This document shows positions 26,766-60,284 of a stretch of DNA of 64,000 nt, in pieces. The stretch lies in NCBI RefSeq assembly GCF_001904745.1, contig NZ_MRCD01000019.1:1-64000 (forward strand), read 5' to 3'. Source of the DNA: Calothrix sp. HK-06. Lineage in GTDB: Bacteria > Cyanobacteriota > Cyanobacteriia > Cyanobacteriales > Nostocaceae. Within the stretch, counting starts at the first letter, position 1; each line of letters starts with the position of its first letter. The notes under the pieces are model-generated. The model saw only the letters and a program-made list of their open reading frames with translations, made no database searches and had not been told where the DNA came from. Both the position numbers and the translations under genes were made by a program.

Positions 26766-27176
26766 TTAGCTGACTTTGTTGACTGTGGTTTTGTCTTCCC
26801 AGGGGTCTTCTTCTAGATTTACTGGTTCGCCGACGTAAATGAACGTTTGTTCAACTTCGTGTGATTGATGAGTTTGTGGAGTTTTTTCTACTGTAGGTGG
26901 GGACGGCACCTTTTCTGGTGCAGGGGGTGGTTCAACGGGTGGAGCAACTTGTACAATTGCTTGTTCGAGTTGCGCTAACATTGCTGCACATGAAATTTTT
27001 TTGTATTTGTAGGTGACGATTATAGATTCGGCTTGAGGGTTAATGCGAATGTCTGTGACAAAATTTAAGGACTCAACTAAGCTTTGAAGTTTGCTGTTAT
27101 AGTTTGTCTCTTCTGCTAATAAGGGAATCCGAATACGTATTCGTCCTTCGATTGCATGAACTATTTGATAATCCAT
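26766..27176 (-). CDS. Stand-alone CoBaHMA/HMA_2-type domain protein
   Basis: In this 136-residue protein, residues 1-75 form a ferredoxin-like HMA-type domain without the metal-binding CxxC. It carries the basic first-strand motif GRIRIRIPLL and the RINPQAESIIVTY second half, shared with the N-termini of three P-type ATPases in this window. These are features of the CoBaHMA family (HMA fold with conserved basic residues, first described with calcyanin). A proline-rich linker (PPVEPPPAPEKVPSPP) and an acidic tail follow. It closes a minus-strand run that includes a Ca2+ ATPase, an acidic peptide, a UbiB kinase and a hydrophobic peptide. Anionic-lipid binding has been proposed for the family; that role here is inference. 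Confidence 0.85.
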   Translation of the reverse strand: MDYQIVHAIEGRIRIRIPLLAEETNYNSKLQSLVESLNFVTDIRINPQAESIIVTYKYKKISCAAMLAQLEQAIVQVAPPVEPPPAPEKVPSPPTVEKTPQTHQSHEVEQTFIYVGEPVNLEEDPWEDKTTVNKVS

Positions 27177-27223
27177 AATTATATAAGGTTTTTATAAAAT
27201 TAAATTGATAGTTACAGAGTGTA

Positions 27224-27442
27224 TTACGCTGGGGTTGGGATAAGTGTATTTCTGATTAAAGCTATTAGCTGTGCGAATAGTTCTGATATTACTTCTATTA
27301 TCCACTCGCTAATTATAGCAGCTACGAATTCTACAAAGAAGGTGACAAATGCCTCAACTAGTACTTCAATCACCCACTTGGCAACATATTCGGCGATAAA
27401 TCCGGCAATTACCTCTGTTAACGACACGATTAAACAAGCCAT
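27224..27442 (-). CDS. Hydrophobic micropeptide with glutamates at 4/8 spacing
   Basis: This 72-residue protein is almost wholly hydrophobic, with glutamates at 10, 18, 26, 30, 38, 46, 50 and 54, every spacing a multiple of four. In an alpha helix this places the acidic side chains along roughly one face. It could be a membrane or amphipathic helix hairpin that oligomerises or binds cations; no family is known to me. It sits 47 bp upstream of the CoBaHMA gene and downstream of the UbiB gene on the same strand. Confidence 0.7.
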   Translation of the reverse strand: MACLIVSLTEVIAGFIAEYVAKWVIEVLVEAFVTFFVEFVAAIISEWIIEVISELFAQLIALIRNTLIPTPA

Positions 27443-27671
27443 AAGTTACCCTAATATAAATGTTAGATTTGTTTATGAATTAATTTTGTTTAATATATAG
27501 TTTATTCATCTAGAGCTAATCGTACCAAACTTGCTTGGCTTTGATTGTCACAGTTTGTAACAATTTTTGTTGTAGGACAAGTGGTTAATTATGTCAAGGG
27601 CAATCAAGGGCGCCGATGTTTTATGCTAAAACTGGTTACAACTTGACTTTTAAAGTAAGTTAAATTCTTAC

Positions 27672-27723
27672 TAGATGCTTCGTTCCTCAGCATGACTTTA
27701 GATGCTTCGTTCCTCAGCATGAC
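27672..27723. repeat. Direct repeat, two 25-bp copies
   Basis: TAGATGCTTCGTTCCTCAGC plus ATGAC occurs at 27672-27696 and again at 27699-27723, ending just before the UbiB gene's stop. This phrase resembles short dispersed repeats common in Nostocales genomes. Confidence 0.85.
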
Positions 27724-27725
27724 AA

Positions 27726-29567
27726 TTAAGATGGTTTGTTGAAGAGTCGGTCGAGAGTTCGTTGCAGTACTGTGTTGGCAAGATAATGACCTAGTTGATG
27801 AGTTTCTGGTTTGACCAAGATTTTGGTTATTGCTTGCGTTAGTTTTATAAAGTTAAATCCTGGGGAGTTTTGCAATAGTTTCCAGATGTTTTTGATGTAG
27901 CTTAGTGTTTGAGGGTCTATACTTGTGGTTAGGTTGGAATAAGGGGAGTCTATTTGCATTTGCAGAAGTACGTTTGCTCTGTATAATACTGTTTCGCCAA
28001 AGGTGTCAAAAATTTGGATTAGTTCATTTGCTAGACGGGTACGAATATATTCTCCTCTTTCTGAAAATAAAAAGTCTATGCCTTGGTCTAATGCTAAGTT
28101 CAGGTTATAGTCGTTATGATTACGAGCGTTAGTTAAGAGTCTTTCTAAACGATTCCAACGGAAGCTACCGTCTTTGAAGAGTAAGTTGTTTAGAGAGGTT
28201 CTTAGTTCGGGTGCTGGGTCGGTTAGTAAACGTTTGGCGATGTAGGGATATGCAGATACTAATACTTTGAAGTCTGGGTCTATTTTCATTGCGATTCCTT
28301 CTAATGCTACCAACGCGCGGATGATGAGGGCGTAGTATGCTGGTACTTGGAAGGAGTGTTCGTACATTAATTCGGAAAGTTGTTGAATTATGACTTGAAA
28401 ATTTAATTCGGCAACGTTTGAAGTTAGTGCATTATTAAATAATGTTGTTAAGGCGCCACGAACGGGAGCTACGTCTACATCGGGTAATAGAAAATCTAGG
28501 TCTATATAATCTTGAACTAAAGCTGTAAAGTCTCGGTTGACTACGTGAACGAGGGCATTTATTAAGGCATATCTTTGATAGGGTTGAATGTAGCTCATCA
28601 TGCCGAAGTCAAGATAAGCTAGTTTGCCGTTTTCCATTGCCAGTAAGTTACCTGGGTGGGGGTCGGCGTGGAAAAAGCCGTGTTCTAATAGTTGCCGTAG
28701 AGTACACTGAATACCAACTTCTATTAATTGACGCGCGTTTATGCCTTGTGCTTGAATGGATGATAGATTAGTTAATTTTGTTCCCTGTATCCACTCCATT
28801 GTTAATACGCGACGGTTGGTATATTGCCAGTAAATTTTTGGCACGTATATATCAGCAATATTACTATAAAGACTGGCAAATTTTTCGGCGTTGTTACCTT
28901 CTTGGATATAGTCCATTTCTTCAAATAAACGGGCGCCGAATTCATCTAAGATGGCAACTAAGTTACTACGAATTTCGCTAAAACGTTTTTCTATCCAGAG
29001 AGTTAACCCTCGCAGGATATACATGTCTAAAGCAATTTTTTCTGCTAGGTCAGGTCGCTGTACTTTTACAGCTACTGTCTCTCCGGTTTTAAGTTTGCCT
29101 TTATATACTTGTCCTAGGGATGCTGCGGCAACTGGTTCAATAGTTAATTCTGCGTATATTTGGTCTGGTGTGGCGCCTAGTTCTTCTAAAATAAATTGAT
29201 GTGCTATTTCGGTAGGAAATGCTGGTAATTCGTCTTGGAGTTTGGCAAGTTCATCGAGGTAAGCTGTTGGTAGTAAGTCGGGACGGGTAGATAGTGCTTG
29301 ACCTACTTTTATATAGGCTGTTCCTAGGTTTGTTAGGTGTTGTCGTAGTTTTATTGCTAGACGGTGGTGTTTTATGTGGGGTTTTAATCGTATGATTCTA
29401 TACCACCACCATTGAGCGGCGAAGCTAATTATAGGAAGCAGTATTTCTAGCCACCGTTTTATTACTCGTATTTTGTTTGAGTTAAATTTATGCGCTATTT
29501 CCTCTGGGTCATAGCAGAGTGGTTGTTCAGAAATTTGAATTGCGATGGGCTGATTTTTTACTTCCAT
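27726..29567 (-). CDS. AarF/ABC1/UbiB family atypical kinase
   Basis: This 613-residue protein has the hallmarks of the UbiB family: the KxGQ helix (KVGQALSTRPDLLP), the alanine-rich loop AAASLGQVYKG in place of a glycine-rich loop, VAVKVQRPDL with the catalytic lysine, and HADPHPGN plus LDFGMM for catalysis and metal binding. Two C-terminal hydrophobic segments may anchor it. UbiB-type ATPases serve quinone and lipid biology in membranes. Its placement between a Ca2+ ATPase with acidic peptide and the hydrophobic/CoBaHMA pair suggests a membrane-lipid role in this island, as inference. Confidence 0.92.
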   Translation of the reverse strand: MEVKNQPIAIQISEQPLCYDPEEIAHKFNSNKIRVIKRWLEILLPIISFAAQWWWYRIIRLKPHIKHHRLAIKLRQHLTNLGTAYIKVGQALSTRPDLLPTAYLDELAKLQDELPAFPTEIAHQFILEELGATPDQIYAELTIEPVAAASLGQVYKGKLKTGETVAVKVQRPDLAEKIALDMYILRGLTLWIEKRFSEIRSNLVAILDEFGARLFEEMDYIQEGNNAEKFASLYSNIADIYVPKIYWQYTNRRVLTMEWIQGTKLTNLSSIQAQGINARQLIEVGIQCTLRQLLEHGFFHADPHPGNLLAMENGKLAYLDFGMMSYIQPYQRYALINALVHVVNRDFTALVQDYIDLDFLLPDVDVAPVRGALTTLFNNALTSNVAELNFQVIIQQLSELMYEHSFQVPAYYALIIRALVALEGIAMKIDPDFKVLVSAYPYIAKRLLTDPAPELRTSLNNLLFKDGSFRWNRLERLLTNARNHNDYNLNLALDQGIDFLFSERGEYIRTRLANELIQIFDTFGETVLYRANVLLQMQIDSPYSNLTTSIDPQTLSYIKNIWKLLQNSPGFNFIKLTQAITKILVKPETHQLGHYLANTVLQRTLDRLFNKPS

Positions 29568-29978: not shown

Positions 29979-32816
29979 TTATTTGCGGGCTTTTAGGAAC
30001 CAACGGGTGAATAGTTTTTCTGCTTCAATCCATACAAAGATGATGGCGCTGAAGCCAACACATATCATTAACTCTGTGAATGTTAGATAATGGGTGCTAA
30101 AGAAGTTCCGTAATGGTTCAACGTAAATTAAGAGTAGTTGCAGTATTGAGGTGAATACTACTGAAAGCAGTATGAAAGGGTTGGAGAAGGGGTTAATTTC
30201 TATAAGCAAGCGAGTGTTTGAACGAATTGCTAATGCATGTCCCATTTGTGCTAAACACAAGGTCGTAAATACCATTGTTTTCCATCGGTCTGGGTCGAGT
30301 CCACCTTCTGTGTATGACCGAGTGTAACCGTAAGCCCAGGACATCATCCCAATTGTCACTACTGCTAACACGATTCCAATGCGAATCATGTATGAGCCTA
30401 AACCCCGTGCAAAAATGTTTTCTTTCGGATTTTTGGGAGGTTGTTGCATCACAATTGGTCTACCAGGTTCAACTGCTAGAGCTAATGCTGGGACTCCATC
30501 TGTTACCAGGTTCATCCAAAGAATTTGTAGTGGTGATAATGGTACACCTCCTAGTCCCATTAACGGCGCCGCTGCAATGGTTAATACTTCTCCAATATTA
30601 CTTCCAAGAATATACCGAATGAAGCGACGAATGTTGATATAAACAACACGTCCCTCTTCTGCAGCTGCAACAATAGTTGAAAAGTTGTCATCTAACAGTA
30701 CCATGTCACTGGCTTCTTTGCTGACATCGGTTCCTGTTATTCCCATTGCAACACCGATATCCGCTTGCTTCAATGCAGGTGCATCATTGACTCCATCTCC
30801 TGTCATTGCAACTACATGACCCCGACGTTGGAGTGCTTGAACTATTTTGAGTTTGTGTTCTGGAGAAACACGCGCGTATACACTTACTCGGTCTACATGT
30901 TGCTCTAGTTGAGCCATGTCAAGTTTTTCTAACTCGCGACCTGTAAGAACTTCGTCTTCTGGTTTGGCAATACCCAAGTCTTCAGCAACTGCTTTCGCTG
31001 TTAATTGGTGGTCACCTGTAATCATTACTGGGCGAATACCCGCACTTCGACAACGCGCGACCGCATCCCGCACTTCTGGACGAGGTGCATCGAGCATTCC
31101 TACTAACCCTAACCAAGTTAAGCCATTTTCAGAAGTTTCTTCAGAACCTTCTGGAGGTAGTTCTTTTAATAGTTTGTTGGCAAATCCTAAAACTCTTAAT
31201 CCTCGTCCTGCCATTTGGTTGTTTTGTTCCAAAATTTGCGAACGCTGTTGTGAAGTTAAAGGTTCTATTTCATGACCAACTTGAATGTGGGTGCATCGCT
31301 CTAATGTTAATTCAGGTGAACCTTTGGTAAACATTAAATAATTTGTTGCATGTAGATGAAAAGCACTTATTCCGGCGCCGGAACCTTCTGCTTCTACCAT
31401 TACACTCATGCGTTTGCGTTCTGAAGAAAATGGAAATTCTGCTACACGAGCAAATCTATTATCTTGTTCGTCTTTACGGAAACCTCCTTTACCTGCTACT
31501 GATAATAAGGCGCCTTCTGTAGGGTCTCCTAAAATTGACCAATCACCATTTTCCTTCTGTAAGATGGCATCATTACATAGCACACAAGCTAGTAACAATG
31601 CTTGAAGTTCTGGATGTGCATTAGAAAGGTGTCTTTTATCTTGCCATTGAAATTCACCATTCGGTGTATATCCTTCCCCTGTAACACGTGCGGTATTACT
31701 ATTGGTACAAACATTTTGCACCACCATTTTGTTTTGAGTTAAAGTTCCGGTTTTGTCGGAACAAATGGTAGTAACTGAACCAAGAGTTTCCACTGCTGGC
31801 AACTTACGAATAAGCGCGTTCCGCTTCACCATGCGTTGCGTTCCTAGTGCAAGCGTCACTGTAATAACAGCAGGTAAACCTTCTGGTACTACTGCCACTG
31901 CCATGCTTAAAGACACTTTTACCAGTTCTTCAAACAAACTGGGATTATATATAGTACCACCCGCAATTACCAACACTACTAACACTAAGGCGCCTGTCAC
32001 CAAAACGTTACCTAGTTGGTTCATACGTTTTTGCAGTGGTGTAGGTTCAGACTCTACCGACTGCAAAGCACTAGCAATTTTTCCCAATTCGGTTTGCATT
32101 CCCGTGCTTGTTACCAAAACAGTTGCTCGTCCCTGCACTACTTCTGTTCCAGAAAACACAAGATTAATTCGGTCTCCTAGAGGTGCATCTTCAGGTAGCT
32201 GTACTTCGGCTTGTTTGTTAACCGCGTGTGCTTCTCCCGTTAAAGCAGATTCTCGAACTTGCAAATTTACAGCTTCCAATAACCGTCCATCAGCAGGTAC
32301 TTTTACTCCTGCTTCAAGTAACATTACATCCCCTGGTACAAGTTCTTTCGATTCGATTTCTAGTGTTTTTCCGTCGCGAATTACTCGTACCTTAGATGAT
32401 GCCATATTTTTTAAAGCAGCTAGAGCTTTTTCGGCGCCGCTTTCTTGGATGTAACCTAACACCCCGTTCAAAATCACCACTACAAAAATAGCAACAGCAT
32501 CTTTTGGAAATACAAACTTGCCTTGAGTAACCGCTTCACGTATATCCAAAACAGCAGAAATAATTGCCACAGCAATCAACATCAATAACATGATGTTTTT
32601 GAACTGATCCCAAAGAATTTCTGCGGGAGTACGTGTTCCGCTTTCTACCAGTTCATTCGAGCCATAGCGATTGAAATATTCTCCAACTTTTGATGTCGTT
32701 AAACCAAATGTGCGGTCGCTTCCCAACCGCTTAAGAGCCTTAACAACTTCTAAGGTATGCCAAGCAGACGTTTCGGTCGGTTGAGCAAACCCAGAGTCTG
32801 AAGCAGTAGAAGTCAT
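29979..32816 (-). CDS. P2A-type Ca2+-transporting ATPase (PacL-like)
   Basis: This 945-residue pump has a cation-ATPase N-domain at about 20-90, TGEAHAV for the dephosphorylation loop, and [16 protein letters not shown] in TM4 with the PEGL calcium motif (Pro311, Glu312). The phosphorylation site [11 protein letters not shown] has Asp354, and [17 protein letters not shown] is the hinge. TM5-TM6 contain GEVLTI and [17 protein letters not shown], which carry site residues of SERCA/PacL pumps. It therefore exports Ca2+ (or possibly Mn2+) from the cytoplasm using ATP. It heads a minus-strand run with the acidic peptide, UbiB, hydrophobic peptide and CoBaHMA genes. Confidence 0.93.
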
Positions 32817-33145: not shown

Positions 33146-33517
33146 TTAAGTAAACTTAAAACATTCCCATTCACCATAGACGGTTTCAGTATTTAGCTTA
33201 ATTTGACCAGCAGCTAATTCTATACCCTTTGAAGCTGCATAGGCGCCAAATGTTCGTAGAAAAAGTGGCATTGCTATTACACCTCCTGGTACGCATCCAG
33301 CTAATAGCACAGAGGCGCCAGCCATCATAATAGATTGTATAAAAGCTTTTAATACTTCTTCGTTGATATTCTCAGTGCGCTCTATGACAACAGAAGCTAT
33401 TAAAGTTGTTTTTCTGGTTTCAACTACTGGCATTGGTAAAATGTTACCATCATTCATCACAACTCTAAACTCTGGCAAGCCGCCGATGCTTCCTAGTTCA
33501 ACTATTTTAGTTGCCAT
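33146..33517 (-). CDS. Hypothetical protein with glycine-rich hydrophobic segment
   Basis: This protein has 123 residues from MATKIVELGSIGGLPEFRVV; the longer frame to 33556 adds an unlikely polar start. The centre (MMAGASVLLAGCVPGGVIAM) is a Gly/Ala-rich hydrophobic stretch that could span or insert in a membrane, flanked by soluble parts. No family was recognised. It lies between the Ca2+ ATPase and two CAX genes on the same strand, so it probably belongs to the island. Confidence 0.55.
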   Translation of the reverse strand: MATKIVELGSIGGLPEFRVVMNDGNILPMPVVETRKTTLIASVVIERTENINEEVLKAFIQSIMMAGASVLLAGCVPGGVIAMPLFLRTFGAYAASKGIELAAGQIKLNTETVYGEWECFKFT

Positions 33518-33571
33518 TATTCTAGTTTGGTGATTGTTATTTTTTTTAGAACACATGTATATTATATCAAT

Positions 33572-33616: not shown

Positions 33617-34750
33617 TTAGGTTGGGTCATAGTAGAACAATACAGAGATAACGCCAAAGAAAATTAGCATTTGCAGCCCATTCAACCAATTACATCGTCC
33701 ATCTTGGGATATTTGAGTCATAATCATAACACTACCAATTAGTGCTGCGATTTGAGGAGGAGAGAAAAGGAAATCAACTGGTTTCCCAACTATGCTAGAG
33801 GCAATGATTAACGTTGGAATTACGAGTAATGCGATTTGAGAGGCAGCATTCATGCCTATTTCAAAGCTTAAGTCTACTTTACTTCTATACGCGACAATCA
33901 CAGCACTCATTATGGCGCCCACATTACCAATTATGCCAATGACTATGGCGCCTACAAAAATCTCTGTCCAACCAAATCCAGCTGTAACAGAATCGACGCA
34001 ATCCGCAACAAAATTAGAAAGAAAAGCCATGAACACGCTAGAAACAGCGAGTACACCAATACAGAAAGAGATGCTCCAAGAAAGTTCATTATTCTCCTCC
34101 ATTTCAAACGCTTCGCTTAAATTTGTGGCTTTTTGAGCTGGTTCTGAGTGCCTAAACCTGGCAAATGTATAGACTATACTGCCTCCATAAGCCATGAGCA
34201 AAAATAAAGATAACCAAACAGAAACGTTTTTAATAACATCTCCAGCATTTATAGTTTCGCTAGAAAAGTCTACTGCATGAGCATAAATAGATGGCATTAG
34301 AATTGCGACGGCAGCTATCATCAATCCTGCTGCTGCATCTTTTGCCCGCTCTAAGGGGAATGTCACTGTACCATAACGATAGCCACCAACCATTACAGCG
34401 GCACCAACTGCAACTAACATGTTACTAATAATGGCGCCTGTCCAAGCAGCTTTTGCTAATGGGCCTAACCCTTTAGCTACCGCTATTAAGCCAAAAATTA
34501 GTTCTGGTAAATTACTAAATGCAGCATTCAACATTCCACCCCAGACAGACCCGACTCTAGCAGCTAATTCTTCTGTTGCATTACCTAACCAATAGGCAAC
34601 AACGACCATTCCTAAACAAGATGTACAAAATAGAACTATTTCCGAGTGCAATATCGGTAAATATGCTACGGCTAAACTTATTGGTAAAAAAATAGCTAAC
34701 CAGTGAATACTAGGTCTAGCTAATGCGTGCTTAACTTCTTGTATTTGCAT
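33617..34750 (-). CDS. CAX-type cation/proton exchanger, divergent second motif
   Basis: This 377-residue exchanger has about eleven membrane segments. The first alpha repeat reads LNAAFSNLPELIFGLIAVA, which keeps the NxPE acidic residue. The second reads GIIGNVGAIMSAVIVAYRSK, where the glutamate of the usual GNAAEH motif is missing, and NAASQIA replaces GSSLQIA. The Ca2+/H+ family call is sound but ion specificity or activity may be changed. It lies 15 bp after a canonical CAX gene on the same strand, so the two may work as a pair. Confidence 0.85.
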   Translation of the reverse strand: MQIQEVKHALARPSIHWLAIFLPISLAVAYLPILHSEIVLFCTSCLGMVVVAYWLGNATEELAARVGSVWGGMLNAAFSNLPELIFGLIAVAKGLGPLAKAAWTGAIISNMLVAVGAAVMVGGYRYGTVTFPLERAKDAAAGLMIAAVAILMPSIYAHAVDFSSETINAGDVIKNVSVWLSLFLLMAYGGSIVYTFARFRHSEPAQKATNLSEAFEMEENNELSWSISFCIGVLAVSSVFMAFLSNFVADCVDSVTAGFGWTEIFVGAIVIGIIGNVGAIMSAVIVAYRSKVDLSFEIGMNAASQIALLVIPTLIIASSIVGKPVDFLFSPPQIAALIGSVMIMTQISQDGRCNWLNGLQMLIFFGVISVLFYYDPT

Positions 34751-40211: not shown

Positions 40212-40436
40212 TCAAGAAAATTGCCTAATTAAGGTCAATAAGTTTTCTTTAATGTAAACTTCGACCTCTTTTGAGGTGAAGCTATAACCATATTCCCCGC
40301 CTAATTGTACAATTAACTTTACAAAACTGTCTCGGTCGGATGCACTTTTTAGCCTTTTTAGCAGAGGCGGGTTCTGCATCACCATTTGGTGAAATTGTTT
40401 GACGTGTTTTGACATATCTTGTCCCACTTCTTTCAT
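40212..40436 (-). CDS. Nif11 family small protein paired with an FGE gene
   Basis: This 74-residue protein has a Nif11-type domain from MSKHVKQFHQMVMQNPPLLK to YGYSFTSKEVEVYIKEN. There is no double-glycine leader site, no cysteine and no obvious core peptide after it. The ATG at 40436 overlaps the stop of the formylglycine-generating-enzyme-like gene by 4 nt (ATGA), so the two are coupled. A start at MSKH (40415) is possible too. It might be a recognition partner or substrate carrier for the upstream enzyme; this is inference from the overlap. Confidence 0.75.
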   Translation of the reverse strand: MKEVGQDMSKHVKQFHQMVMQNPPLLKRLKSASDRDSFVKLIVQLGGEYGYSFTSKEVEVYIKENLLTLIRQFS

Positions 40437-45255: not shown

Positions 45256-46593
45256 ATGTCCCTTGTTGCCATTGACCGCGTTAGTATCCATTCCAACAGG
45301 CGTCCTCTGAATGACCAGAAAGTTGCAGAGTTGATGCAGTCAATTAAAGCGAATGGACTCTTAAATCCTATTACTATCGATCAAAACCTTAATCTTGTTG
45401 CAGGACTCCACCGACTTACTGCCTGTAAGTTATTGGGGTTAGACCAAATAGAGTGTCATGTTGTTACCTGTGTTGACACTGACCACGCACGGTTGGCGGA
45501 AATTGACGAAAATTTAATTCGCAACGAACTAGAGGCTTTAGAACGGGCTGAACTTTGGTTGGAGCGAGATAAAATTTTAGAGCGTATTGGTTTACGCGCT
45601 CAATCGGGAGAGAACCAATATACGAAAAAAGGGGGTGAATTGATTTCACCCCCAACTAAAACAACACAGCAACTTGCTCAAGAAACTGGTTACAATAAGC
45701 GTACTTACCAATTAGGCAAACAAATTGCCAAAAATATAGACCCAGAAGTTAAAGAAGTTATTAAGAAGACACCTGTTGCAAAAAGTCACTCAAATCTACT
45801 CAAAATAGCGAGAGCAGGTACTAAAGAGCGAGAAATTGCAGAACAGGCTGAACAAAAGGCCTTAGAAGCTGGGCGCAATTCAAAGCGTCTAGAACAGGAA
45901 AAACACGAAAAGCTAGCAGCAGAGGCGAGAGCTAAATATAAGGAGCAACAACTAATGGCACTTCAAAGTACTACCGCCGAAATTGAGGCGAAACAATCCG
46001 TTAAACTCCATAGGACGAAACCAAGTTTTGAAGAGAAACACTCTAGATATAAAGCTTCACCCGAAGTAAATATTGGCGACGAGTGGATGCTTGAGCGTCA
46101 TTTAGTTTATTGTGGCGACACAGCAGATGGTAAATTTGTAAATAAATTATTGCCTTCAAATGCGTCTTTAGCAATTGCCACGGTTTCTTCACCTTGGAAT
46201 CATGATTATTTGGTTGATGAAGCTCATGTTGTTGCTGTAATTGCTCGTGAAGGTCAAATTCAAGATTTTTGCACTCGTCACCGAATGCCTTTAAGATTCG
46301 AGTGGATTTTAGATAATACGTATATAGGGGTTTACTCTCGTAAACCTATGCTAAAGCCAGAAAAACCTATTGCGATTGAGGGAATCGAAGGTATTGTCTC
46401 TTATTTAATGAGTTTGTATACTAAGGTTGAGAACTTTGTTTTGGCGCCTTTTTTAGGAAACGCTGAGGTATTAATGGCCTGCGAGCGGATGGGGAGGATT
46501 TGTTTCAGCGGAGATAAAAACCCTGAAAACGTCGAACGAGCTATTGAGCGTTGGCAAAAGTGGACTGGTCAAGAAGCAAGAAAAGAAAATTAA
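45256..46593 (+). CDS. ParB-N domain protein with degenerate DNA-methylase-like C-terminus
   Basis: This protein has 445 residues from MSLVAIDRVSIHSNRRPLND. The ParB/sulfiredoxin-like N-domain at about 5-100 includes VAGLHRLTACKLLGL. A helical DNA-binding part follows, then a Lys/Glu-rich coiled coil at about 190-250. The C-terminal 170 residues start GDEWMLERHLVYCGDTA and end LAPFLGNAEVLMACERMGRI with GDKNPENVERAIERW, which copies a beta-class DNA methyltransferase. The catalytic DPPY is replaced by SSPWNHDY, so it is probably inactive as a methylase. A TTG at 45244 is less likely as start. Confidence 0.82.
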   Translation: MSLVAIDRVSIHSNRRPLNDQKVAELMQSIKANGLLNPITIDQNLNLVAGLHRLTACKLLGLDQIECHVVTCVDTDHARLAEIDENLIRNELEALERAELWLERDKILERIGLRAQSGENQYTKKGGELISPPTKTTQQLAQETGYNKRTYQLGKQIAKNIDPEVKEVIKKTPVAKSHSNLLKIARAGTKEREIAEQAEQKALEAGRNSKRLEQEKHEKLAAEARAKYKEQQLMALQSTTAEIEAKQSVKLHRTKPSFEEKHSRYKASPEVNIGDEWMLERHLVYCGDTADGKFVNKLLPSNASLAIATVSSPWNHDYLVDEAHVVAVIAREGQIQDFCTRHRMPLRFEWILDNTYIGVYSRKPMLKPEKPIAIEGIEGIVSYLMSLYTKVENFVLAPFLGNAEVLMACERMGRICFSGDKNPENVERAIERWQKWTGQEARKEN

Positions 46594-47270: not shown

Positions 47271-48023
47271 TTACGGAACAACGAAATATTCATATACGCC
47301 AATGATAATCACTAATGCTCCTGAGAGAATTCCAGACCAATATCCAGATATTCTGCCTGTAAAGCGATTGCCTAAAAAATATCCCATTGATATTCCTAAA
47401 ATACTGAGTACCAAAACTAACAAGCTAGTTACCCAGACATTTAAGTTAGAAATGCCTCCCCCAATACCCGAACCTAAGTTATTGAGCGTCAACCCAAAGG
47501 CAAGGGCAATAGATTCTCGCACGTCGATATAACCAGAATGGTCTAAATCAGCTTTTTCGGGATGTTCCAAGAACTTCTCATAAGAAAACTCGTGTAAAAA
47601 TTCTTGGGAAAAATCTTTAGAAGAATCATTGTACACAGTGTCAGATACTGTTGGCGCCATAACTTGGTCACTTGAAGCCAGTAGATAAGTAGCTCCCTCA
47701 CGCACTCTGGCTTTTTTTCTGGCTTTTTTACGTTTCAACTTCAACGTTTCCCAAATACTCCATGCTCCGACAGCTACCAAGACAAAGCTGCCTATTACAT
47801 TGGCTGTATTTATAGATAAATAATGATTAATATCTTTGCCAACAGCAACCGATAAATATGTACCAATAGCAGAAACAAGAGCAATGAATAGATTTGTCAG
47901 AATACCGATTTTGAGTTTTTTAACTCCATAAGCGATTCCGACGGCAAAGTTATCTATATTAGAGGCGATAGCAAGTAATAAAGCTGAGATGACATGCATA
48001 ATGGTAGCTCCTGCCACTTTCAA
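47271..48023 (-). CDS. MntP/YtaF-type membrane protein with EF-hand-like loop
   Basis: This 250-residue protein has six membrane segments in two repeats. The first has ASNIDNFAVGIAYG with the conserved Asp of MntP/YtaF proteins; the second has GLTLNNLGSGIGGG, where the acidic residue is Asn. The cytosolic loop holds DLDHSGYIDVRE (about 159-170), an EF-hand-like calcium loop. The family includes manganese exporters (MntP) and YtaF; the Ca2+ loop suggests calcium sensing, as inference. Its start overlaps the stop of the upstream DUF1345 gene by 4 nt, so the two are coupled. Confidence 0.85.
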   Translation of the reverse strand: MKVAGATIMHVISALLLAIASNIDNFAVGIAYGVKKLKIGILTNLFIALVSAIGTYLSVAVGKDINHYLSINTANVIGSFVLVAVGAWSIWETLKLKRKKARKKARVREGATYLLASSDQVMAPTVSDTVYNDSSKDFSQEFLHEFSYEKFLEHPEKADLDHSGYIDVRESIALAFGLTLNNLGSGIGGGISNLNVWVTSLLVLVLSILGISMGYFLGNRFTGRISGYWSGILSGALVIIIGVYEYFVVP

Positions 48024-48691: not shown

Positions 48692-49471
48692 TTAAAGTAA
48701 TCCGGATGCAATATTAACGCTCGAAGCTAAAATCACCATGTAGAAGAAAAAAGAAATCATTCCATGTCCCAAAGCGAGTCTTCGCATGGGTAAAGATGGA
48801 ATCGAAACATCTGAAGTTTGAGCGGTCATTCCCAAAGTGAAAGAGAAATACATAAAATCCCAGTAGTCAGGTAAGTCATCACCAGGAAAATCTAAGCCCC
48901 CAGCATACCCCAATTCCTCGTTCATGAAATCTTGACGGTAGTAACAAGTGGCGTAATGCAGGGCAAACATTGTATGAGTCAGAAACCAAGAACCAATAAC
49001 TGCTATTAAAGACAAACTAACTTCGATTGCTTGGGTAGAAGCTGGAATATTTTTGGTGTCGCTTACTGCCTGCATTAACCCAATGGCGAAGATACTAGTG
49101 CAAGCTGTCATAACCACCAACATAAAGACAGTTAAATGCTGTGCTTCTTGACGTTGGGCACGGTAGCGCGTTTTTTGGGGAGTTGCATTGCATATCATTA
49201 ACACTACCAAGCTCAGGAAGCAGAGAATTCCTGAAATCCAACTGATTAGGATACGGTTATCAAAATGCATGGAATCTGGCATCACTAAAAAAGCAACCAT
49301 CCCCAACATAATAGATAACCCTAGTCGAGTTTTGGAATCTAAATGGCTTAACAAGCTGTGTGCGAGTCTCAAACTTGTTGTTAATAGATTCTTAAAAGAC
49401 CCTATGCGTTGAGGATAGCTGATATTTTGCGCTTGTTCAGAATTCTGTTTCTTACCTGGAGAAGCTTTCAT
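48692..49471 (-). CDS. DUF1345 membrane protein, longer paralogue
   Basis: This is a 259-residue paralogue of the next gene with an extra polar N-terminus of about 45 residues. The shared patterns HTMFALHYATCYY and PDYWDFMYFSFTLGMTAQTS are clear. Function is unknown. It is first in the minus-strand DUF1345-DUF1345-MntP/YtaF run. Confidence 0.85.
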   Translation of the reverse strand: MKASPGKKQNSEQAQNISYPQRIGSFKNLLTTSLRLAHSLLSHLDSKTRLGLSIMLGMVAFLVMPDSMHFDNRILISWISGILCFLSLVVLMICNATPQKTRYRAQRQEAQHLTVFMLVVMTACTSIFAIGLMQAVSDTKNIPASTQAIEVSLSLIAVIGSWFLTHTMFALHYATCYYRQDFMNEELGYAGGLDFPGDDLPDYWDFMYFSFTLGMTAQTSDVSIPSLPMRRLALGHGMISFFFYMVILASSVNIASGLL

Positions 49472-50026: not shown

Positions 50027-50338
50027 ATGTTTGAGTTAGAAGCTTTATTGCTAGGACTAGAACCAATGACTGCTGCTGTAATTGGTGTTGGCGCCTTAGT
50101 TGCTGCACCAGTACTTGGCGCCATCGATGCTGCGACAGGTCATAATGTTTCCGAGGCAGCAAGATCATCAGCTAAAACTGGCTTGGTATGGGTTTTCCAA
50201 GCATTCGATAAAGTCCAGTCGAGCGCAGCTGAAGCGAGTGAATCTTTCCAAGATTTAGTTGCAGAAGCAAAAGCAGACCTTAGATCATCGAAGAATGGTA
50301 CTGGCGATTTATCCCCGCGCGAAGTGACAATCGGTTAG
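50027..50338 (+). CDS. DUF5132-like protein with glycine-zipper-like segment
   Basis: This is a 103-residue protein. Residues about 14-42 form a Gly/Ala-rich hydrophobic segment (VIGVGALVAAPVLGAIDAAT) with G-x3-G-like spacing, followed by an amphipathic helix (VFQAFDKVQSSAAEASESFQ) and a polar tail. The layout resembles DUF5132 proteins, which I recall as neighbours of HMA_2-type ATPases. Helix-helix packing in or on a membrane is likely. A GGAG lies about 10 nt before the ATG. Two GGCGCC sites fall in the hydrophobic part. A strong terminator follows. Confidence 0.7.
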   Translation: MFELEALLLGLEPMTAAVIGVGALVAAPVLGAIDAATGHNVSEAARSSAKTGLVWVFQAFDKVQSSAAEASESFQDLVAEAKADLRSSKNGTGDLSPREVTIG

Positions 50339-50425: not shown

Positions 50426-50440
50426 TTTGTGAGACATATA

Positions 50441-50632
50441 ATGGTTAACTATCCAGATTTTTTGAATGTGCGTAAACTCGCATTCATGCTTGTTGTTGGG
50501 CCTTTAGCGTTGCTAATGCTATTTGCAACGCTTGACCTTACCATACACCCCAGTAAAGTATTAAAAGTTTCCGAGCAATCTTGTGCAAAGCTTGAAAATC
50601 AAAGTGGAATTCAAAATGTTGATTGCCCTTAA
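50441..50632 (+). CDS. Small single-pass membrane protein
   Basis: This protein has 63 residues from MVNYPDFLNVRKLAFMLVVG. One hydrophobic segment (about 12-31) is followed by a short external part with two cysteines (Cys48 and Cys62, counted from this start), which could form a disulfide outside the cytoplasm. The frame can also start at a GTG at 50429. It lies 25 bp before the carbonic anhydrase gene on the same strand, so the two are probably co-transcribed. No family was recognised. Confidence 0.6.
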   Translation: MVNYPDFLNVRKLAFMLVVGPLALLMLFATLDLTIHPSKVLKVSEQSCAKLENQSGIQNVDCP

Positions 50633-50657: not shown

Positions 50658-51287
50658 ATGCGAAAATTAATAGCTGGTCTGCACGAATTCCAAACCAAGT
50701 ATTTTAGCCAACATCGAGACCTTTTCGAGCAACTCTCTCAAGAACAGCATCCCAGAGCATTATTTATTACCTGCTCAGACTCCAGAATTGACCCAAATTT
50801 ATTGACTCAAACCGAACCAGGTGAACTCTTCATTATTCGTAACGCGGGTAATATAATTCCTCCTTACGGTGCAACGAATGGTGGTGAAGGAGCAGCGGTT
50901 GAGTATGCAGTCCAAGTTTTAGGAATAAGACAAATAATTGTCTGCGGTCATTCCAACTGTGGCGCCATGAAAGGTTTATTGCAACTGGGTAGATTAGCCG
51001 AAGATATGCCCTTAGTGTACGACTGGTTGAAACATGCTGAAGCAACTCGTCGATTAATTAAAGAAAATTATCAAGACTACGAGGGAGAAGAATTATTAAA
51101 TGCCACAATCGAGGAGAATGTTTTAACCCAGTTAGAAAACTTACGGACTTATCCTGTAATTCATTCCAAACTTCATAAGGGTGAAATTACCCTCTACGGT
51201 TGGGTTTATAAAATTGATACAGGAGGAGTTTTTGTTTATAGCATGGAGCGTTGTAACATCCAAGCTGAACATGAAGTTCTCGTTTAA
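50658..51287 (+). CDS. Beta-class carbonic anhydrase
   Basis: This 209-residue enzyme interconverts CO2 and bicarbonate. Zinc ligands Cys39, His98 and Cys101 and the Asp41-Arg43 dyad are all present (CSDSRID and CGHSNCGAMKG), and the length suits a compact beta-CA without the long C-terminal extension of carboxysomal CcaA. There is no signal peptide, so it is cytosolic. It is surrounded by cation transport genes and downstream of a small membrane protein. In that company a role in supplying carbonate or buffering protons is plausible, as inference. Confidence 0.95.
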   Translation: MRKLIAGLHEFQTKYFSQHRDLFEQLSQEQHPRALFITCSDSRIDPNLLTQTEPGELFIIRNAGNIIPPYGATNGGEGAAVEYAVQVLGIRQIIVCGHSNCGAMKGLLQLGRLAEDMPLVYDWLKHAEATRRLIKENYQDYEGEELLNATIEENVLTQLENLRTYPVIHSKLHKGEITLYGWVYKIDTGGVFVYSMERCNIQAEHEVLV

Positions 51288-53301: not shown

Positions 53302-53323
53302 AATTTTTAAATTAATTAGCCCA

Positions 53324-53358
53324 CAGAAACCTGGTTTCTCCAAGAAACCGGGTTTCTA
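53324..53358. repeat. AGAAACCTGGTTTCT / AGAAACCGGGTTTCT hairpins
   Basis: Two near-identical palindromes lie back to back between the micropeptide gene and the pseudo-ATPase gene, in the pseudo-ATPase leader. Confidence 0.8.
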
Positions 53359-53363: not shown

Positions 53364-53558
53364 TTACAGCATAATCAAGAAAAAAGGAACCATTGGAATT
53401 CCAAAGGCAGCATTCAGCGAATAAGCTAAACCAGTTAAAACAACTGAAGCAGCAACCGAAACAACTAACGAAACTACTACATTCGGAATTGCAACCTTGA
53501 GAGTATCAATTGCTCTATGTACAAAAGAAGAATTAGCCGAGCTTGCAGAATAAGACAT
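53364..53558 (-). CDS. Small membrane protein beside the pseudo-ATPase
   Basis: In this 64-residue protein, a polar N-terminus (about 1-22) precedes one long hydrophobic segment or a tight hairpin (VVVSLVVSVAASVVLTGLAY) that ends AAFGIPMVPFFLIML. It could be a subunit or regulator of the adjacent ATPase-like protein; the two genes are 62 bp apart on the same strand. No family was recognised. Confidence 0.6.
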   Translation of the reverse strand: MSYSASSANSSFVHRAIDTLKVAIPNVVVSLVVSVAASVVLTGLAYSLNAAFGIPMVPFFLIML

Positions 53559-54205: not shown

Positions 54206-55285
54206 ATGAAAACAAAAGATAAAGTTTTACTTCGGATGCTGGTGTTTGTGCCCATTGCTTTCGCGACAGAATGGCTGCATTTACATCCAGTGATTGTTTT
54301 TCTGGCTTCTGGTTTAGCAATCGTTCCTCTTGCTGCTTGGATTGCTAATTCTACAGAAGAAATTGCTAGTGTTGTGGGCCCCTCACTCGGTGGGTTACTC
54401 AATGCGACTTTTGGCAATGCCACTGAAATGATTATTTCTATCGTGGCTTTACAAGCTGGTTTGGTTGAGGTGGTCAAAGCTAGTATTACAGGTACTATCG
54501 TCGCTAATTTACTTTTAGCTTTAGGCGCCGCAATTACGTTAGGAGGGTTACAGTATAAAGAACAAGAATTTCAGCCTACAGTTGCTCGTATTAATGCTTC
54601 TTCACTTAATCTGGCATTAGTAGTACTACTGACACCAACTGCTATCGACTTTACATCAAAAGGATTACAACCTTCAACAATTAATAATTTTTCAGCGGTT
54701 GCTTCTGTTCTTTTATTAGTGTTCTACCTTTTGACGCTTTTATTCTCGATGAAGACTCACAAGGATATGTATGAACTCAGAGCAACTGAAGTAGATGATG
54801 CAATACATGAATCTAGTGGTGATAAAACTTCATTATGGAAAAACATTGCAACTTTACTAGTATGTACTATTGTACTGGTATTCGTTTCTGATGTATTAGT
54901 TGCCAGTTTAGAAAAAGCCATTACGACTTTGGGTTTTACGAGTTTATTTACAGGGGTGATTTTAATACCACTATTTGGAGGTATCGTAGAGTACATAGCT
55001 GCTGCCACATTCGCCATGAAGAATAAAATGGACTTAGCGGTGGCAGTAGCTATGGGTTCGAGTTTGCAAATTGCGATGTTTGTTGCCCCAATTTTGGTAT
55101 TAGTCGGTCAATTAATGGGAAAACCGATGAATTTGGATTTTAACCCGTTTGAAGTTTTGGCGGTAGCAATTGCAGTTATTATTACCAACTCTATCAGTAG
55201 CGATGGACGTTCTAATTGGCTGGAAGGCGCCTTGCTACTTACTACATACGTTGTGTTAGGCACCGCATTTTACTTTCATCCGTGA
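54206..55285 (+). CDS. CAX-type Ca2+/H+ exchanger
   Basis: This 359-residue exchanger has both acidic motifs: LLNATFGNATEMIISIVAL and PLFGGIVEYIAAATFAMKNK, with GSSLQIAMFVAPILV. It lacks the long basic N-terminus of some relatives. It is a close paralogue of the gene at 59208, including the leader (GATACAGGA before the ATG), which indicates gene duplication within the island. Its 3-prime end overlaps the convergent GDT1-type gene by 10 bp. It should remove Ca2+ from the cytoplasm at the expense of the proton gradient. Confidence 0.93.
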   Translation: MKTKDKVLLRMLVFVPIAFATEWLHLHPVIVFLASGLAIVPLAAWIANSTEEIASVVGPSLGGLLNATFGNATEMIISIVALQAGLVEVVKASITGTIVANLLLALGAAITLGGLQYKEQEFQPTVARINASSLNLALVVLLTPTAIDFTSKGLQPSTINNFSAVASVLLLVFYLLTLLFSMKTHKDMYELRATEVDDAIHESSGDKTSLWKNIATLLVCTIVLVFVSDVLVASLEKAITTLGFTSLFTGVILIPLFGGIVEYIAAATFAMKNKMDLAVAVAMGSSLQIAMFVAPILVLVGQLMGKPMNLDFNPFEVLAVAIAVIITNSISSDGRSNWLEGALLLTTYVVLGTAFYFHP

Positions 55286-57481: not shown

Positions 57482-57691
57482 ATCAAACTATCCAAATTGT
57501 TAACATTGCCTGTCGAATTAGTAACATCCCATATCTTCAAACTTTTGGGATGTTCCTATTTAATATAGCTTATCAGCTATTACTGTAATTATGAGCAGTA
57601 TTTTCAGTCAACTGCATGACTTTTAACGTACTGTAACATTTAATATGCTTATATTGTGGCACAGGCGCCTAATGCCTGTGCAGTCAACAAC

Positions 57692-58273: not shown

Positions 58274-58627
58274 AGTGCTTACGTATTACTCACATATGTT
58301 TGCCCACTTAGCCTATAATATCAAACTACTAGATTTTTAACTCTTATTTTGAGAAAAGCAAAAATTGACACTTCAAAAATCACTTTTCGAGTGTGTCAAA
58401 TTCTCGAAACAATAAATATCTGGCGCTTGTAAAAAATTACCGATACGTAAAGGTACGGCTATTAGCTTGTTTAATAGTACGACTATAGGTGCAACTGAGC
58501 CTGCACAGTAAACTAGAAACCCCAGGAGCCTGCGCGGTGGGGTGGTTCATTGTAAATCGTTTAAGAGCAAGTTTTGGAGGATTTTTGACTTTCGACGGTT
58601 GAAGGTAACAGCGGAAATAGGCGCCAG
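58274..58627. other. Intergenic, no gene seen
   Basis: This AT-rich stretch holds short imperfect inverted phrases around 58440-58520. No coding frame or strong repeat was recognised. Confidence 0.5.
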
Positions 58628-59026
58628 CTATTCAAAGATTGAGGTTGTATCTGTATAAAATCTAAAAGAGCTTACTAAGCCTTGTTTGTTGCGCTCGGTA
58701 ATAGCTACTGCTCTAACAGTTACACGTTTTCCATCCAATCTTACATAATGATTTAAAGCTTCAAGAACGAAAGATAAATCATCACCATAAATATTTAATA
58801 AATCATGTTCTAAGCTACTAAAAGTTTTCCAGTAATGAGAAAGGTTTTGTAAAATAGTAGCTTTACCTTGAACAGGAGAATTATTGTTCGGTAACATTAC
58901 ACAGTCATCAGCTAGAAAATTTATATACGCTTCAATGTCTTTATTGTCAATAGCCTCTAAGTATGAAAGATACCATTCATAGACTTCAGGCGCCAGTTGA
59001 TTAATTTTGAGGTTATGGGTTTTCAT
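58628..59026 (-). CDS. SnoaL/NTF2-like protein
   Basis: This 132-residue protein has the alpha+beta cone layout of the SnoaL/NTF2-like superfamily: WYLSYLEAIDNKDIEAYINF, LADDCVMLPNNNSPVQGK, and closing strands VRAVAITERNKQGLVSSFRF. Such proteins bind or convert small hydrophobic molecules, but many have no known substrate. It stands alone, next to a hairpin repeat and the last CAX gene. Confidence 0.85.
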   Translation of the reverse strand: MKTHNLKINQLAPEVYEWYLSYLEAIDNKDIEAYINFLADDCVMLPNNNSPVQGKATILQNLSHYWKTFSSLEHDLLNIYGDDLSFVLEALNHYVRLDGKRVTVRAVAITERNKQGLVSSFRFYTDTTSIFE

Positions 59027-59096
59027 AAATTATTCTTCTTAATATTTTTGCTTACTAGTAATATAATTCAAGACTGTACAATGCGTCATACAAGCT

Positions 59097-59166
59097 CAAA
59101 GAAACCGGGCTTTTATACGATGATTTGCTTTTTTAGCACAATATTTGGCAAAAAGCCCGGTTTCTA
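59097..59166. repeat. AAGAAACCGGGCTTTT ... AAAAGCCCGGTTTCT hairpin
   Basis: Inverted arms of about 17 bp enclose roughly 35 bp, like a shorter form of the 12254-12376 element. It lies upstream of the CAX gene at 59208. Confidence 0.8.
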
Positions 59167-59207
59167 GTCTTGCTGAAAAGTAGATAATGATACAGGATAA
59201 ATTAAAA

Positions 59208-60284
59208 ATGACAACGAAGGATAAAATCTTACTTGGGATGCTGGTGTTTGTGCCAATTTGTTTTGTAACTGAATGGCTGCATTTAAATTCTGTAATTGTT
59301 TTCCTTGCTTCTGGCTTGGCAATTATTCCTTTAGCGGCTCGCATTGCTAATTCTACAGAGGAAATTGCTAGTGTTATCGGGCCTTCTTTGGGAGGACTGC
59401 TTAATGCCACCTTTGGCAATGCAACTGAAATGATTATCTCTATTGTTGCTCTCCAAGCTGGTTTAGTGGAGGTGGTAAAAGCTAGTATTACGGGGACTAT
59501 CATTGCTAATTTGCTCTTGGCTTTAGGCGCCGCAATTACTTTAGGAGGGTTACGGTTCAAAGAGCAAAATTTTCAGCCCACGGTTGCAAGAATTAATGCT
59601 TCTTCACTCAACTTGGCGCTAGTTGTACTACTAACACCTACTGCCATAGATTTTACATCAAAAGGGTTAGAGCCTGCAACTATTAACGATTTCTCCGCAG
59701 TTGCTTCTGTTCTTTTGTTGCTATTCTACGTTTTGTCGTTGTTGTTCTCCATAAAAACTCACAAATATGTATATGAGGTGCCAGCAACTGAAGGAGATGA
59801 ACCTAATGATACTACTCATCAACATGAACCTTTATGGCAACCAATCATTATTTTATTAGTATGTACTATTGTACTGGTATTCGTTTCTGATATATTAGTT
59901 GAGAGTTTAGAAAAAGCCATTACGACTTTGGGCTTTACTAAACTATTTACAGGGGTAATTTTAATTCCACTGTTTGGAGGCGCCGTTGAGTATATCACAG
60001 CCGCGACCTTTGCCATTAAAAACAAAATGGATTTAGCAGTGGCGGTAGCAATGGGTTCAAGCCTACAAATTGCCATGTTTGTCGCTCCAATTTTAGTATT
60101 AGTTGGTCAGTTCATGGGGCAACCGATGAATTTAGAATTTAATCCTTTTGAAGTTTTGACAGTGGGAATTGCTGTTGTTATTACTAACTCTATTAGCACC
60201 GATGGAAGTTCTAATTGGCTAGAAGGCGCCTTGCTACTTATTACCTACGCAGTTTTAGGAACAGCATTTTATTTCCATCCTTAG
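59208..60284 (+). CDS. CAX-type Ca2+/H+ exchanger, recent paralogue
   Basis: This protein has 358 residues from MTTKDKILLGMLVFVPICFV, behind AGGA at a suitable distance; an upstream Met at 59187 is less likely because the paralogue at 54206 starts at the equivalent point. Both exchanger motifs are intact (LLNATFGNATEMIISIVAL, PLFGGAVEYITAATFAIKNK). Identity to the 54206 gene is very high except in the central charged loop, so they arose by duplication about 5 kb apart. It marks the right end of the cation island. Confidence 0.93.
   Translation: MTTKDKILLGMLVFVPICFVTEWLHLNSVIVFLASGLAIIPLAARIANSTEEIASVIGPSLGGLLNATFGNATEMIISIVALQAGLVEVVKASITGTIIANLLLALGAAITLGGLRFKEQNFQPTVARINASSLNLALVVLLTPTAIDFTSKGLEPATINDFSAVASVLLLLFYVLSLLFSIKTHKYVYEVPATEGDEPNDTTHQHEPLWQPIIILLVCTIVLVFVSDILVESLEKAITTLGFTKLFTGVILIPLFGGAVEYITAATFAIKNKMDLAVAVAMGSSLQIAMFVAPILVLVGQFMGQPMNLEFNPFEVLTVGIAVVITNSISTDGSSNWLEGALLLITYAVLGTAFYFHP

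What the first reader, a model, noticed from the sequence alone, without database searches (positions are those of the whole stretch)
26766..60284. A 33-kb island joining CoBaHMA-type domains, Ca2+ pumps and exchangers, carbonic anhydrase and acidic or hydrophobic peptides
Four HMA-fold domains without CxxC and with a basic GRxRIRxP strand occur here: one alone (26766) and three on P-type ATPases (36965, 42300, 51406). Around them are a PacL-like Ca2+ ATPase, four CAX genes, a GDT1-type gene, an MntP/YtaF gene with an EF-hand-like loop, a beta-carbonic anhydrase, an Asp-tailed peptide and several membrane micropeptides. Established: CoBaHMA domains were recognised through calcyanin, linked to intracellular amorphous CaCO3 in cyanobacteria. 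Inference: this island manages Ca2+ (or another cation) and carbonate in a membrane compartment.
Basis: partly seen in the sequence, partly recalled or inferred. Interest (0 to 1): 0.85.

Follow-up and report, generated by a model that had tools for sequence, protein, structure and literature searches.

The report
Calcification-type island with dead pump
A cyanobacterial gene island for calcium and carbonate handling contains a pump-like protein that has lost the parts needed to burn ATP yet is preserved by selection, and in related cyanobacteria the island usually travels with calcyanin-like genes, a marker linked to making calcium carbonate inside cells.

Summary
(1) ORF 51406-53343 is not a pump: it keeps the CoBaHMA/HMA_2 domain and membrane part of a P1B-ATPase but lost DKTGT, TGES, GDGxND and the N domain. 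All 15 orthologues read in full (of 18) are dead, with dN/dS (0.16-0.25) near that of live paralogues. (2) It occurs in 18 of 217 family genomes, each with two live CoBaHMA-ATPases. (3) Orthologues of 26766 in 6 islands are CoBaHMA plus glycine zippers (a 7th partial), i.e. calcyanin-like; 6 more islands have a zipper protein with another N-terminus. Strong zipper hits: 14 of 18 island genomes, 0 of 199 others. (4) In 386 genomes of the phylum, close homologues of ATPase 36965 (58% identity or more) occur in 11: the 10 with calcyanin architecture, plus this one; three family genomes outside that sample break the rule. (5) This genome has no zipper: 26766 ends after the CoBaHMA part, so intracellular carbonate in this strain is not supported by the known marker. 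Best reading: a calcyanin-associated alkaline-earth cation/carbonate module with an active pump and a pseudo-ATPase partner. Cation, membrane and the dead protein's role are inferred.

The parts
26766..27176 (-). CoBaHMA/HMA_2 single-domain protein, 136 aa; shortened orthologue of calcyanin-like proteins, glycine zipper absent
   Evidence: PF19991 42 bits; alignment A5 shares MDYQIVHAIEGRIRIRIPLL and DPWE, ends where relatives continue; no zipper remnant downstream in 3 frames
27224..27442 (-). 72-aa hydrophobic peptide, in 6 of 17 other islands
27726..29567 (-). ABC1/UbiB-type kinase-like protein, 10 of 17
   Evidence: PF03109
29716..29910 (-). Asp/Glu-tailed peptide, 5 of 17
29979..32816 (-). 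PacL-type P2A Ca2+-ATPase, 15 of 17, 80-98% identical
   Evidence: Pfam N, E1-E2, HAD and C domains
33146..33556 (-). conserved 136-aa protein, no Pfam family, 11 of 17
33617..34750 (-). CAX-type exchanger, 10 of 17
   Evidence: PF01699
34766..35938 (-). CAX-type exchanger, 16 of 17
   Evidence: PF01699
36365..36865 (-). universal stress protein, 16 of 17
   Evidence: PF00582
36965..39721 (-). ATPase A: live CoBaHMA P1B-type ATPase with DFGTGIRVSVPTT in place of the CPC motif, plus a C-terminal ~53-aa module also seen on some dead ATPases and calcyanin-like proteins of relatives
   Evidence: TIGR01525 E 3.7e-146; motifs; module; 17 of 17 islands; in the 10 calcyanin-architecture genomes of 386
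40212..40436 (-). Nif11-domain small protein, 16 of 17
   Evidence: PF07862 34.2 bits
40433..41905 (-). FGE/SUMF1-like protein with N-terminal CxxC pairs, 17 of 17
   Evidence: PF03781
42300..44561 (-). ATPase B: live CoBaHMA P1B-type ATPase (DFSHNIRIAVPST), 17 of 17
   Evidence: TIGR01525 E 1e-133; motifs
45244..46593 (+). ParB-N-domain protein, 17 of 17
   Evidence: PF02195
46872..47186 (+). conserved 104-aa protein, no family, 17 of 17
47271..48023 (-). MntP-like transporter with an EF-hand-like loop, 14 of 17
   Evidence: PF02659
48020..48676 (-). DUF1345 membrane protein, 14 of 17
48692..49471 (-). DUF1345 membrane protein, 13 of 17
50027..50338 (+). DUF5132-like 103-aa protein, 17 of 17
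   Evidence: PF17195 18.8 bits, below its cut-off of 25
50429..50632 (+). 67-aa hydrophobic protein, 17 of 17
50658..51287 (+). beta-carbonic anhydrase, 14 of 17 (4 partial matches)
   Evidence: PF00484
51406..53343 (-). CoBaHMA pseudo-P-type ATPase (dead): no DKTGT, TGES or GDGxND, N domain deleted, membrane part conserved
   Evidence: AlphaFold pLDDT 79.0, pTM 0.70; nearest folds P1B-ATPases
53364..53558 (-). 64-aa hydrophobic peptide, 15 of 17
54206..55285 (+). CAX-type exchanger; each of the 17 relatives has a match to this one or to 59187
   Evidence: PF01699
55966..57123 (-). ArsA-type ATPase with HSP20-like C-terminus, 16 of 17
   Evidence: PF02374, PF17886
59187..60284 (+). CAX-type exchanger, 81-93% identical to the nearest copy in G004, G002, G003 and G009

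Best explanation
A conserved module that moves a hard divalent cation, most likely Ca2+ or another alkaline earth, and works with calcyanin-like proteins in cyanobacteria that carry them. Shown: colinear conservation in the family; co-occurrence with calcyanin-architecture genes; loss of every catalytic motif in the third ATPase together with its preservation by selection; CoBaHMA domains on ATPases A, B, the dead protein and some calcyanin-like proteins; a second, C-terminal module on A, on some dead ATPases and on some calcyanin-like proteins (in the window itself only A has it). Inferred: (a) ATPase A, and perhaps B, pumps the cation across a membrane using oxygen ligands (an invariant Asp) where P1B pumps use Cys; (b) the dead paralogue is a non-pumping partner, a scaffold or regulatory subunit, held at the same membrane by its CoBaHMA domain; (c) PacL and CAX keep cytosolic Ca2+ low and carbonic anhydrase adjusts the carbonate pool; (d) calcyanin acts where A and the dead protein sit. 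In this strain and its near relatives G002 and G004 no zipper protein was found while the rest stays, so here the module probably does cation storage or export without calcyanin.
For: Dead orthologue in 18 of 217 family genomes; A and B with intact motifs in all 18 (some rows cut by stretch ends). Zipper hits at E<=1e-6 in 13 of 217, one being the query's own genome; all 13 are among those 18 and 12 lie within 10 kb of the dead gene. With the profile A4, hits at E<=2.8e-13 in 14 of 18 against 0 of 199. Phylum sample: 10 of 386 genomes have calcyanin architecture; ATPase A at 58% identity or more in those 10 plus this genome, next best 52%. In the four f30 genomes A, the dead protein and calcyanin are unlinked yet all present. 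Dead clade support 100/100, 17 rows. dN/dS dead 0.16-0.25 (7 pairs), A 0.12-0.15 (4), B 0.13-0.29 (7). Shared C-terminal module. Asp377 invariant in 54 of 54 rows. Phormidium sp. LEGE 05292 has an A-type gene (72%), a dead-type gene and a 208-aa zipper gene in one locus.
Against: This genome, G002, G004 and G212 have the island but no strong zipper hit. A-type ATPases (63-65% identical) occur in G200, G211 and G216, family genomes outside the phylum sample; G200 has a weak zipper hit (E 3.8e-7) beside it, the other two none at E<=1e-4. A was not searched for in the other family genomes. In the f29 genomes G298 and G436 no dead-type protein was seen: three of their four ATPase-like proteins were read and keep DKTGT, the fourth (725 aa) was not read. 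Zipper proteins of the Fischerella-type islands, f8 and f29 have no CoBaHMA domain by eye. The window's dead protein and the f30 proteins lack the C-terminal module. G430 has a zipper fragment at a contig end but no A at E<=1e-120. No substrate has been measured; TIGR01525 names the pump family 'heavy metal'. ACC granules are not bounded by a bilayer, so a membrane pump cannot sit directly on them. Co-occurrence counts are not phylogenetically independent.
Confidence: 0.55

Rival explanations
1. General Ca2+ or divalent-cation homeostasis or detoxification island; calcyanin is a later, optional passenger and the link with intracellular carbonate is indirect.
For: PacL, CAX and MntP are ordinary transporter families; four island genomes lack a strong zipper hit; A-type ATPases in G200, G211 and G216 without a strong zipper hit.
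Against: Across 386 genomes A at 58% identity or more is in all 10 genomes with calcyanin architecture and one other, although unlinked in f30; A, some dead proteins and some calcyanin-like proteins share two modules.
Confidence: 0.25
2. The pumps carry Mn2+, Mg2+ or another non-mineral cation, and EF-hand, CAX and PacL genes are nearby for a different reason.
For: MntP and GDT1 families include Mn2+ transporters (recalled; Pfam calls PF02659 a putative manganese efflux pump); the M4 site lacks CPC and its specificity is unknown.
Against: PacL in 15 of 17 islands at 80-98% identity and a 54206/59187-type CAX in 17 of 17; GDT1 in 0 of 17.
Confidence: 0.15
3. A ferrosome-like lipid-bounded organelle for a metal, built around P1B-type ATPases and small hydrophobic proteins.
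For: P-type ATPases with several small hydrophobic proteins.
Against: No DUF4405 match among the island proteins scanned against Pfam (weak matches below the printed thresholds would not show); no FezB sequence could be fetched for comparison.
Confidence: 0.04
4. The dead ATPase is a decaying pseudogene.
For: All catalytic motifs lost; tail dN/dS 0.78-0.87, P remnant up to 0.56.
Against: Same loss in 15 of 15 read, present in 17 of 17 relatives' islands and in family f30, whole-gene dN/dS 0.16-0.25, membrane segments near-invariant.
Confidence: 0.01

Closest known systems
Calcyanin (ccyA) and its neighbourhood (Benzerara et al. 2022, recalled; mentioned in PMC11773610 and PMC12836880, passages seen)
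   Same: CoBaHMA-type N-terminus and C-terminal glycine zippers in island orthologues; Ca transport genes nearby
   Different: Window protein has no zipper; a phylum-wide live and dead CoBaHMA-ATPase pair is not described in the passages I saw, and the source paper could not be read
CoBaHMA domains (Gaschignard et al. 2024, recalled, not held in the library)
   Same: HMA fold without CxxC, conserved basic strand, found alone and on P-type ATPases
   Different: I recall no report of a catalytically dead CoBaHMA-ATPase; the paper was not available to check
P1B (heavy-metal) ATPases CopA/ZntA
   Same: TIGR01525 match for A and B over its cut-off; best PDB sequence and fold matches are P1B pumps
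   Different: CPC replaced by FGT/FGS-type motifs with an invariant Asp; no CxxC; one paralogue dead
Pseudoenzymes in general (PMC5106787, PMC10211241, search listing only)
   Same: Conserved fold with lost catalytic motifs, kept by selection
   Different: A pseudo-P-type ATPase whose membrane part is the best conserved part

Membership tests
CoBaHMA / HMA_2 (PF19991) | profile match above cut-off | tested here: met
   3 of 4 domains pass; 42300 scores 17.9 against 30
CoBaHMA / HMA_2 (PF19991) | no CxxC metal site | tested here: met
CoBaHMA / HMA_2 (PF19991) | separate CoBaHMA profile distinct from HMA_2 | not testable with these tools
   no such profile held
Calcyanin: window 26766 | C-terminal glycine zippers | tested here: not met
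   136 aa; best zipper match anywhere in the genome E 0.042
Calcyanin: 26766 orthologues of G009, G042, G114, G126, G225, G231 | variable N-terminus plus repeated glycine zippers | tested here: inconclusive
   CoBaHMA plus two zipper repeats; three repeats are described for calcyanin (recalled)
Calcyanin: zipper proteins of G192 and of families f30, f8, f29 | repeated zipper clusters in a 325-438 aa protein | tested here: met
   three clusters in G192, G472, f8 and f29; two by this count in G441, G379 and G301
Active P-type ATPase: ATPases A and B | DKTGT, TGES, GDGxND/GEGxND | tested here: met
Active P-type ATPase: 51406 | DKTGT phosphorylation site, TGES, GDGxND, N domain | tested here: not met
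P1B heavy-metal ATPase: ATPases A and B | CPx motif in M4 | tested here: not met
   DFGTGIRVSVPTT / DFSHNIRIAVPST; subfamily model TIGR01525 is met
Ferrosome (fez) cluster | FezC-like DUF4405 cytochrome | tested here: not met
   no DUF4405 in the Pfam scans of the island proteins
Intracellular ACC formation in this strain | ACC granules | not testable with these tools
   needs microscopy

The most novel reading that the evidence does not exclude
Cyanobacterial intracellular carbonate formation uses a dedicated machine: a CoBaHMA P-type pump (36965 type) and a pseudo-ATPase paralogue that has given up ATP hydrolysis to act as membrane scaffold or cation path, joined with calcyanin through the shared CoBaHMA and C-terminal modules. 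The window shows a natural calcyanin-less version of it.
Probability: 0.33. Interest if true: 0.92.

Novelty: new variant of a known kind. Interest (0 to 1): 0.78.

Why it matters
How cyanobacteria concentrate Ca to form intracellular amorphous carbonate is open: Blondeau et al. [quoted passage not shown] ATPase A, found with calcyanin-like genes in four families here, and its dead paralogue, in two of them, are named, testable candidates. A P-type ATPase kept by selection without any catalytic motif would also be an unusual pseudoenzyme. Whether the authors of the calcyanin and CoBaHMA papers already noticed this could not be checked.

Tried and rejected
Rejected: decaying pseudogene (dN/dS); the GDT1 gene as part of the core (0 of 17); a zipper remnant downstream of 26766 (none seen in three frames); the short 496-520 aa CoBaHMA proteins of genus g76 as members of the dead clade (no DKTGT, but two of three put in the tree fall elsewhere on a long branch, so parallel loss is possible); zipper hits in G392, G028 and G396 as calcyanin (one N-terminal zipper cluster). 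An independent loss of the catalytic Asp (DKTGT to AKTGT) was seen in G216 (L086 12849-15038). The first structure job, with 15 rows, was poor (pLDDT 54.3); the second, with 54 rows, was good. Literature: searches for CoBaHMA, calcyanin (10), DUF5132/CoBaHMA terms (11), ferrosome/FezB (27), P-type ATPase pseudoenzyme terms, ccyA terms and ACC with P-type ATPase (96, zero papers) listed no paper whose title or abstract start describes the dead ATPase or the co-occurrence; the listings were read, and passages of six papers. Benzerara 2022, Gaschignard 2024 and Grant 2022 are recalled only.

Rows left out of counts: 3 of 18 dead orthologues (G042, G114, G225) were cut by stretch ends and not read in full; G192 was counted over two contigs. 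Of 21 zipper genomes in the phylum sample, G525 had no locus, G273 no frame with more than two zipper hits, and G430 was set aside as a contig-end fragment; the other 18 were sorted by architecture (10 kept: two or more clusters of 28 residues or longer; 8 not). That rule was written down after the ATPase A result was known, though G472, G441, G540, G298, G436, G028, G396 and G392 had been read before it; by E-value alone G298 and G436 do not stand out from G392 and G028. The zipper profile A4 was built from 11 of the proteins that it later finds, so those match by construction; G114, G180, G231 and the f30, f8 and f29 proteins were not in it.
Full report
Observation. The window is G000:C100:1-64000 of a 9.99-Mb genome. 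The listed genes are present. Three of four HMA-fold domains pass the PF19991 cut-off; 42300 does not (17.9 against 30 bits) but aligns with them. None of the four proteins has CxxC. The genome holds 12 HMA_2 matches at E<=0.001, three of them in this island.

The dead ATPase. ORF 51406-53343 (645 aa) matches the E1-E2 ATPase family (70.7 bits) but no HAD or Hydrolase family. Aligned to its live paralogues it lacks TGES, DKTGT, TGD and GDGxND, and about 120 residues of the N domain are missing. Fifteen of the 18 family orthologues, this one included, were read in full; all 15 lack DKTGT, while membrane stretches such as QFDFGSG and PNLxMQIGGGMxxGxNP are near-invariant. In all 23 dead-type rows of alignment A6 the Arg and the Pro of the M4 motif IRxSxPT are gone and the Asp before them remains (Asp377 is invariant in 54 of 54 rows). 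Pairwise dN/dS is 0.16-0.25 (7 pairs), against 0.12-0.15 for A (4 pairs) and 0.13-0.29 for B (7 pairs); by segment, for two pairs, CoBaHMA 0.03-0.07, membrane 0.00-0.17, A domain 0.11-0.20, P remnant 0.17-0.56, tail 0.78-0.87. The AlphaFold model (pLDDT 79.0, pTM 0.70) is nearest to P1B-ATPases in the PDB (7r0g, E 1e-22, TM-score 0.55).

The island. A search of 217 family genomes found the dead orthologue (53% identity or more) in 18 including this one; the next match is 41% and is a live ATPase (its match list was cut, in E-value order). Rows for A and B in all 18 genomes keep TGES, DKTGT and GDGxND/GEGxND. In 17 of 17 relatives the fetched stretches hold matches to A and B, in G192 on a second contig. 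Roholtiella LEGE 12411, Anabaena azotica FACHB-119, Fischerella muscicola PCC 7414, Chlorogloeopsis fritschii PCC 6912, Westiellopsis prolifica and Pelatocladus maniniholoensis. Outside the family, dead relatives at 48% identity lie in a Synechococcales MAG (C42_A2020_086), an Oculatellaceae MAG and an Aphanocapsa MAG; the Aphanocapsa locus holds PacL, the 33146 family, a CoBaHMA-zipper protein of 356 aa, ArsA, the dead ATPase, ATPase B and more. The gene order differs between relatives: in G009 and its like the 26766 orthologue lies between the carbonic anhydrase and 53364.

Calcyanin. A protein of G003 away from the island (L119) proved to be CoBaHMA plus glycine zipper. Its zipper half finds 13 of 217 genomes at E<=1e-6, G003 itself included; all 13 are among the 18 island genomes and 12 of the matches lie within 10 kb of the dead gene. 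In G009, G042, G114, G126, G225 and G231 the protein is CoBaHMA, a DPWE linker, a ~53-aa module and two zippers; G180 has a partial zipper and G212 none; in G069, G095, G096, G192, G194 and G217 the N-terminus is different, and G192 has three zippers. With the profile A4, strong hits (E<=2.8e-13) are in 14 of 18 island genomes and 0 of 199 others; three weak hits (G179, G200, G209) are at E 3.8e-7 to 8.5e-5. Fisher's test gives 8e-19, but related genomes are not independent. The window's 26766, and its orthologues read in G003 and G004 (135 and 145 aa), end after the DPWE/DPWG linker; the G002 copy matches 26766 over its whole length. No zipper better than E 0.01 was found in G000 (best 0.042), G002 or G004.

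Phylum. In 386 genomes drawn evenly, the zipper profile hits 21 at E<=1e-5. Looking at the loci (19, G042) leaves 10 with calcyanin architecture, by the rule of two or more zipper clusters of 28 residues or longer: G042, G472, G441, G379, G301, G540, G308, G432, G298 and G436; G430 is a contig-end fragment. ATPase A at 58-100% identity is in exactly those 10 and this genome; the next is 52% (the two best candidates of each genome scored). The rule is not perfect outside the sample: G200, G211 and G216 have A-type ATPases (63-65%) with a weak zipper hit or none. Dead-type proteins of 606-617 aa without DKTGT are in G472, G441, G379 and G301, unlinked to A and to calcyanin; they join the dead clade with support 100/100. 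The contig lengths 2,593,857 (G301) and 3,049,282 (G436) agree, from memory, with Thermosynechococcus vestitus (elongatus) BP-1 and Gloeomargarita lithophora; the genomes themselves are unnamed. BP-1 and G. lithophora are described as ACC formers in PMC6087745 (passages).

Shared module. A ~53-aa C-terminal module with the pattern LA[KR]RL...[IV]AW is found on A-type ATPases (8 distinct), dead ATPases (9) and zipper or CoBaHMA-only calcyanin-like proteins (10), and on no other of 5,287 ORFs of the loci fetched by then at E<=0.01. The loci are biased towards the island. In the window only ATPase A has it; the window's dead protein, the f30 proteins and the Fischerella-type zipper proteins do not.

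Against. Four island genomes lack a strong zipper hit; G200, G211 and G216 have A-type ATPases without one; no dead protein was seen in the f29 genomes (three of four ATPase-like proteins read); no substrate is known; ACC granules have no bilayer.

Verdict. A conserved, probably calcyanin-linked cation module with a pseudo-ATPase. Function inferred; this strain is a zipper-less variant.

Noticed in passing
L086 12849-15038 (G216): A second, independent dead CoBaHMA-ATPase in which DKTGT reads AKTGT while the N domain is kept, next to an A-type ATPase.
   Followed up: partly
L185 9086-10573, L186 5068-6627, L187 3904-5409 (genus g76): 496-520 aa CoBaHMA membrane proteins with most of the A domain and the N domain gone and no DKTGT, in genomes that also hold calcyanin-like genes; possible parallel loss.
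   Followed up: partly
window 40212-41905: A Nif11-domain small protein overlapping an FGE/SUMF1-like gene, in 16 and 17 of 17 islands; what it modifies is unknown.
   Followed up: no
window 45244-46593: A ParB-N-domain protein conserved in 17 of 17 islands, matching a type II methyltransferase model in PADLOC.
   Followed up: no
G000:C179, locus L021 8094-13123: A second CoBaHMA locus: a 406-aa CoBaHMA protein, ATPase, DUF5132-like protein and HMA_2 protein; related ATPases are common in relatives.
   Followed up: partly
L109-L117, L122 and L123 (several genomes): CoBaHMA-like N-terminus fused to a PAP2-type phosphatase-like membrane protein (SFPSGH motif read by eye), also in this genome at C237.
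   Followed up: no
window 13117-22170: Four genes with glycosyltransferase-2 domains and an ABC transporter, likely a polysaccharide cluster.
   Followed up: no
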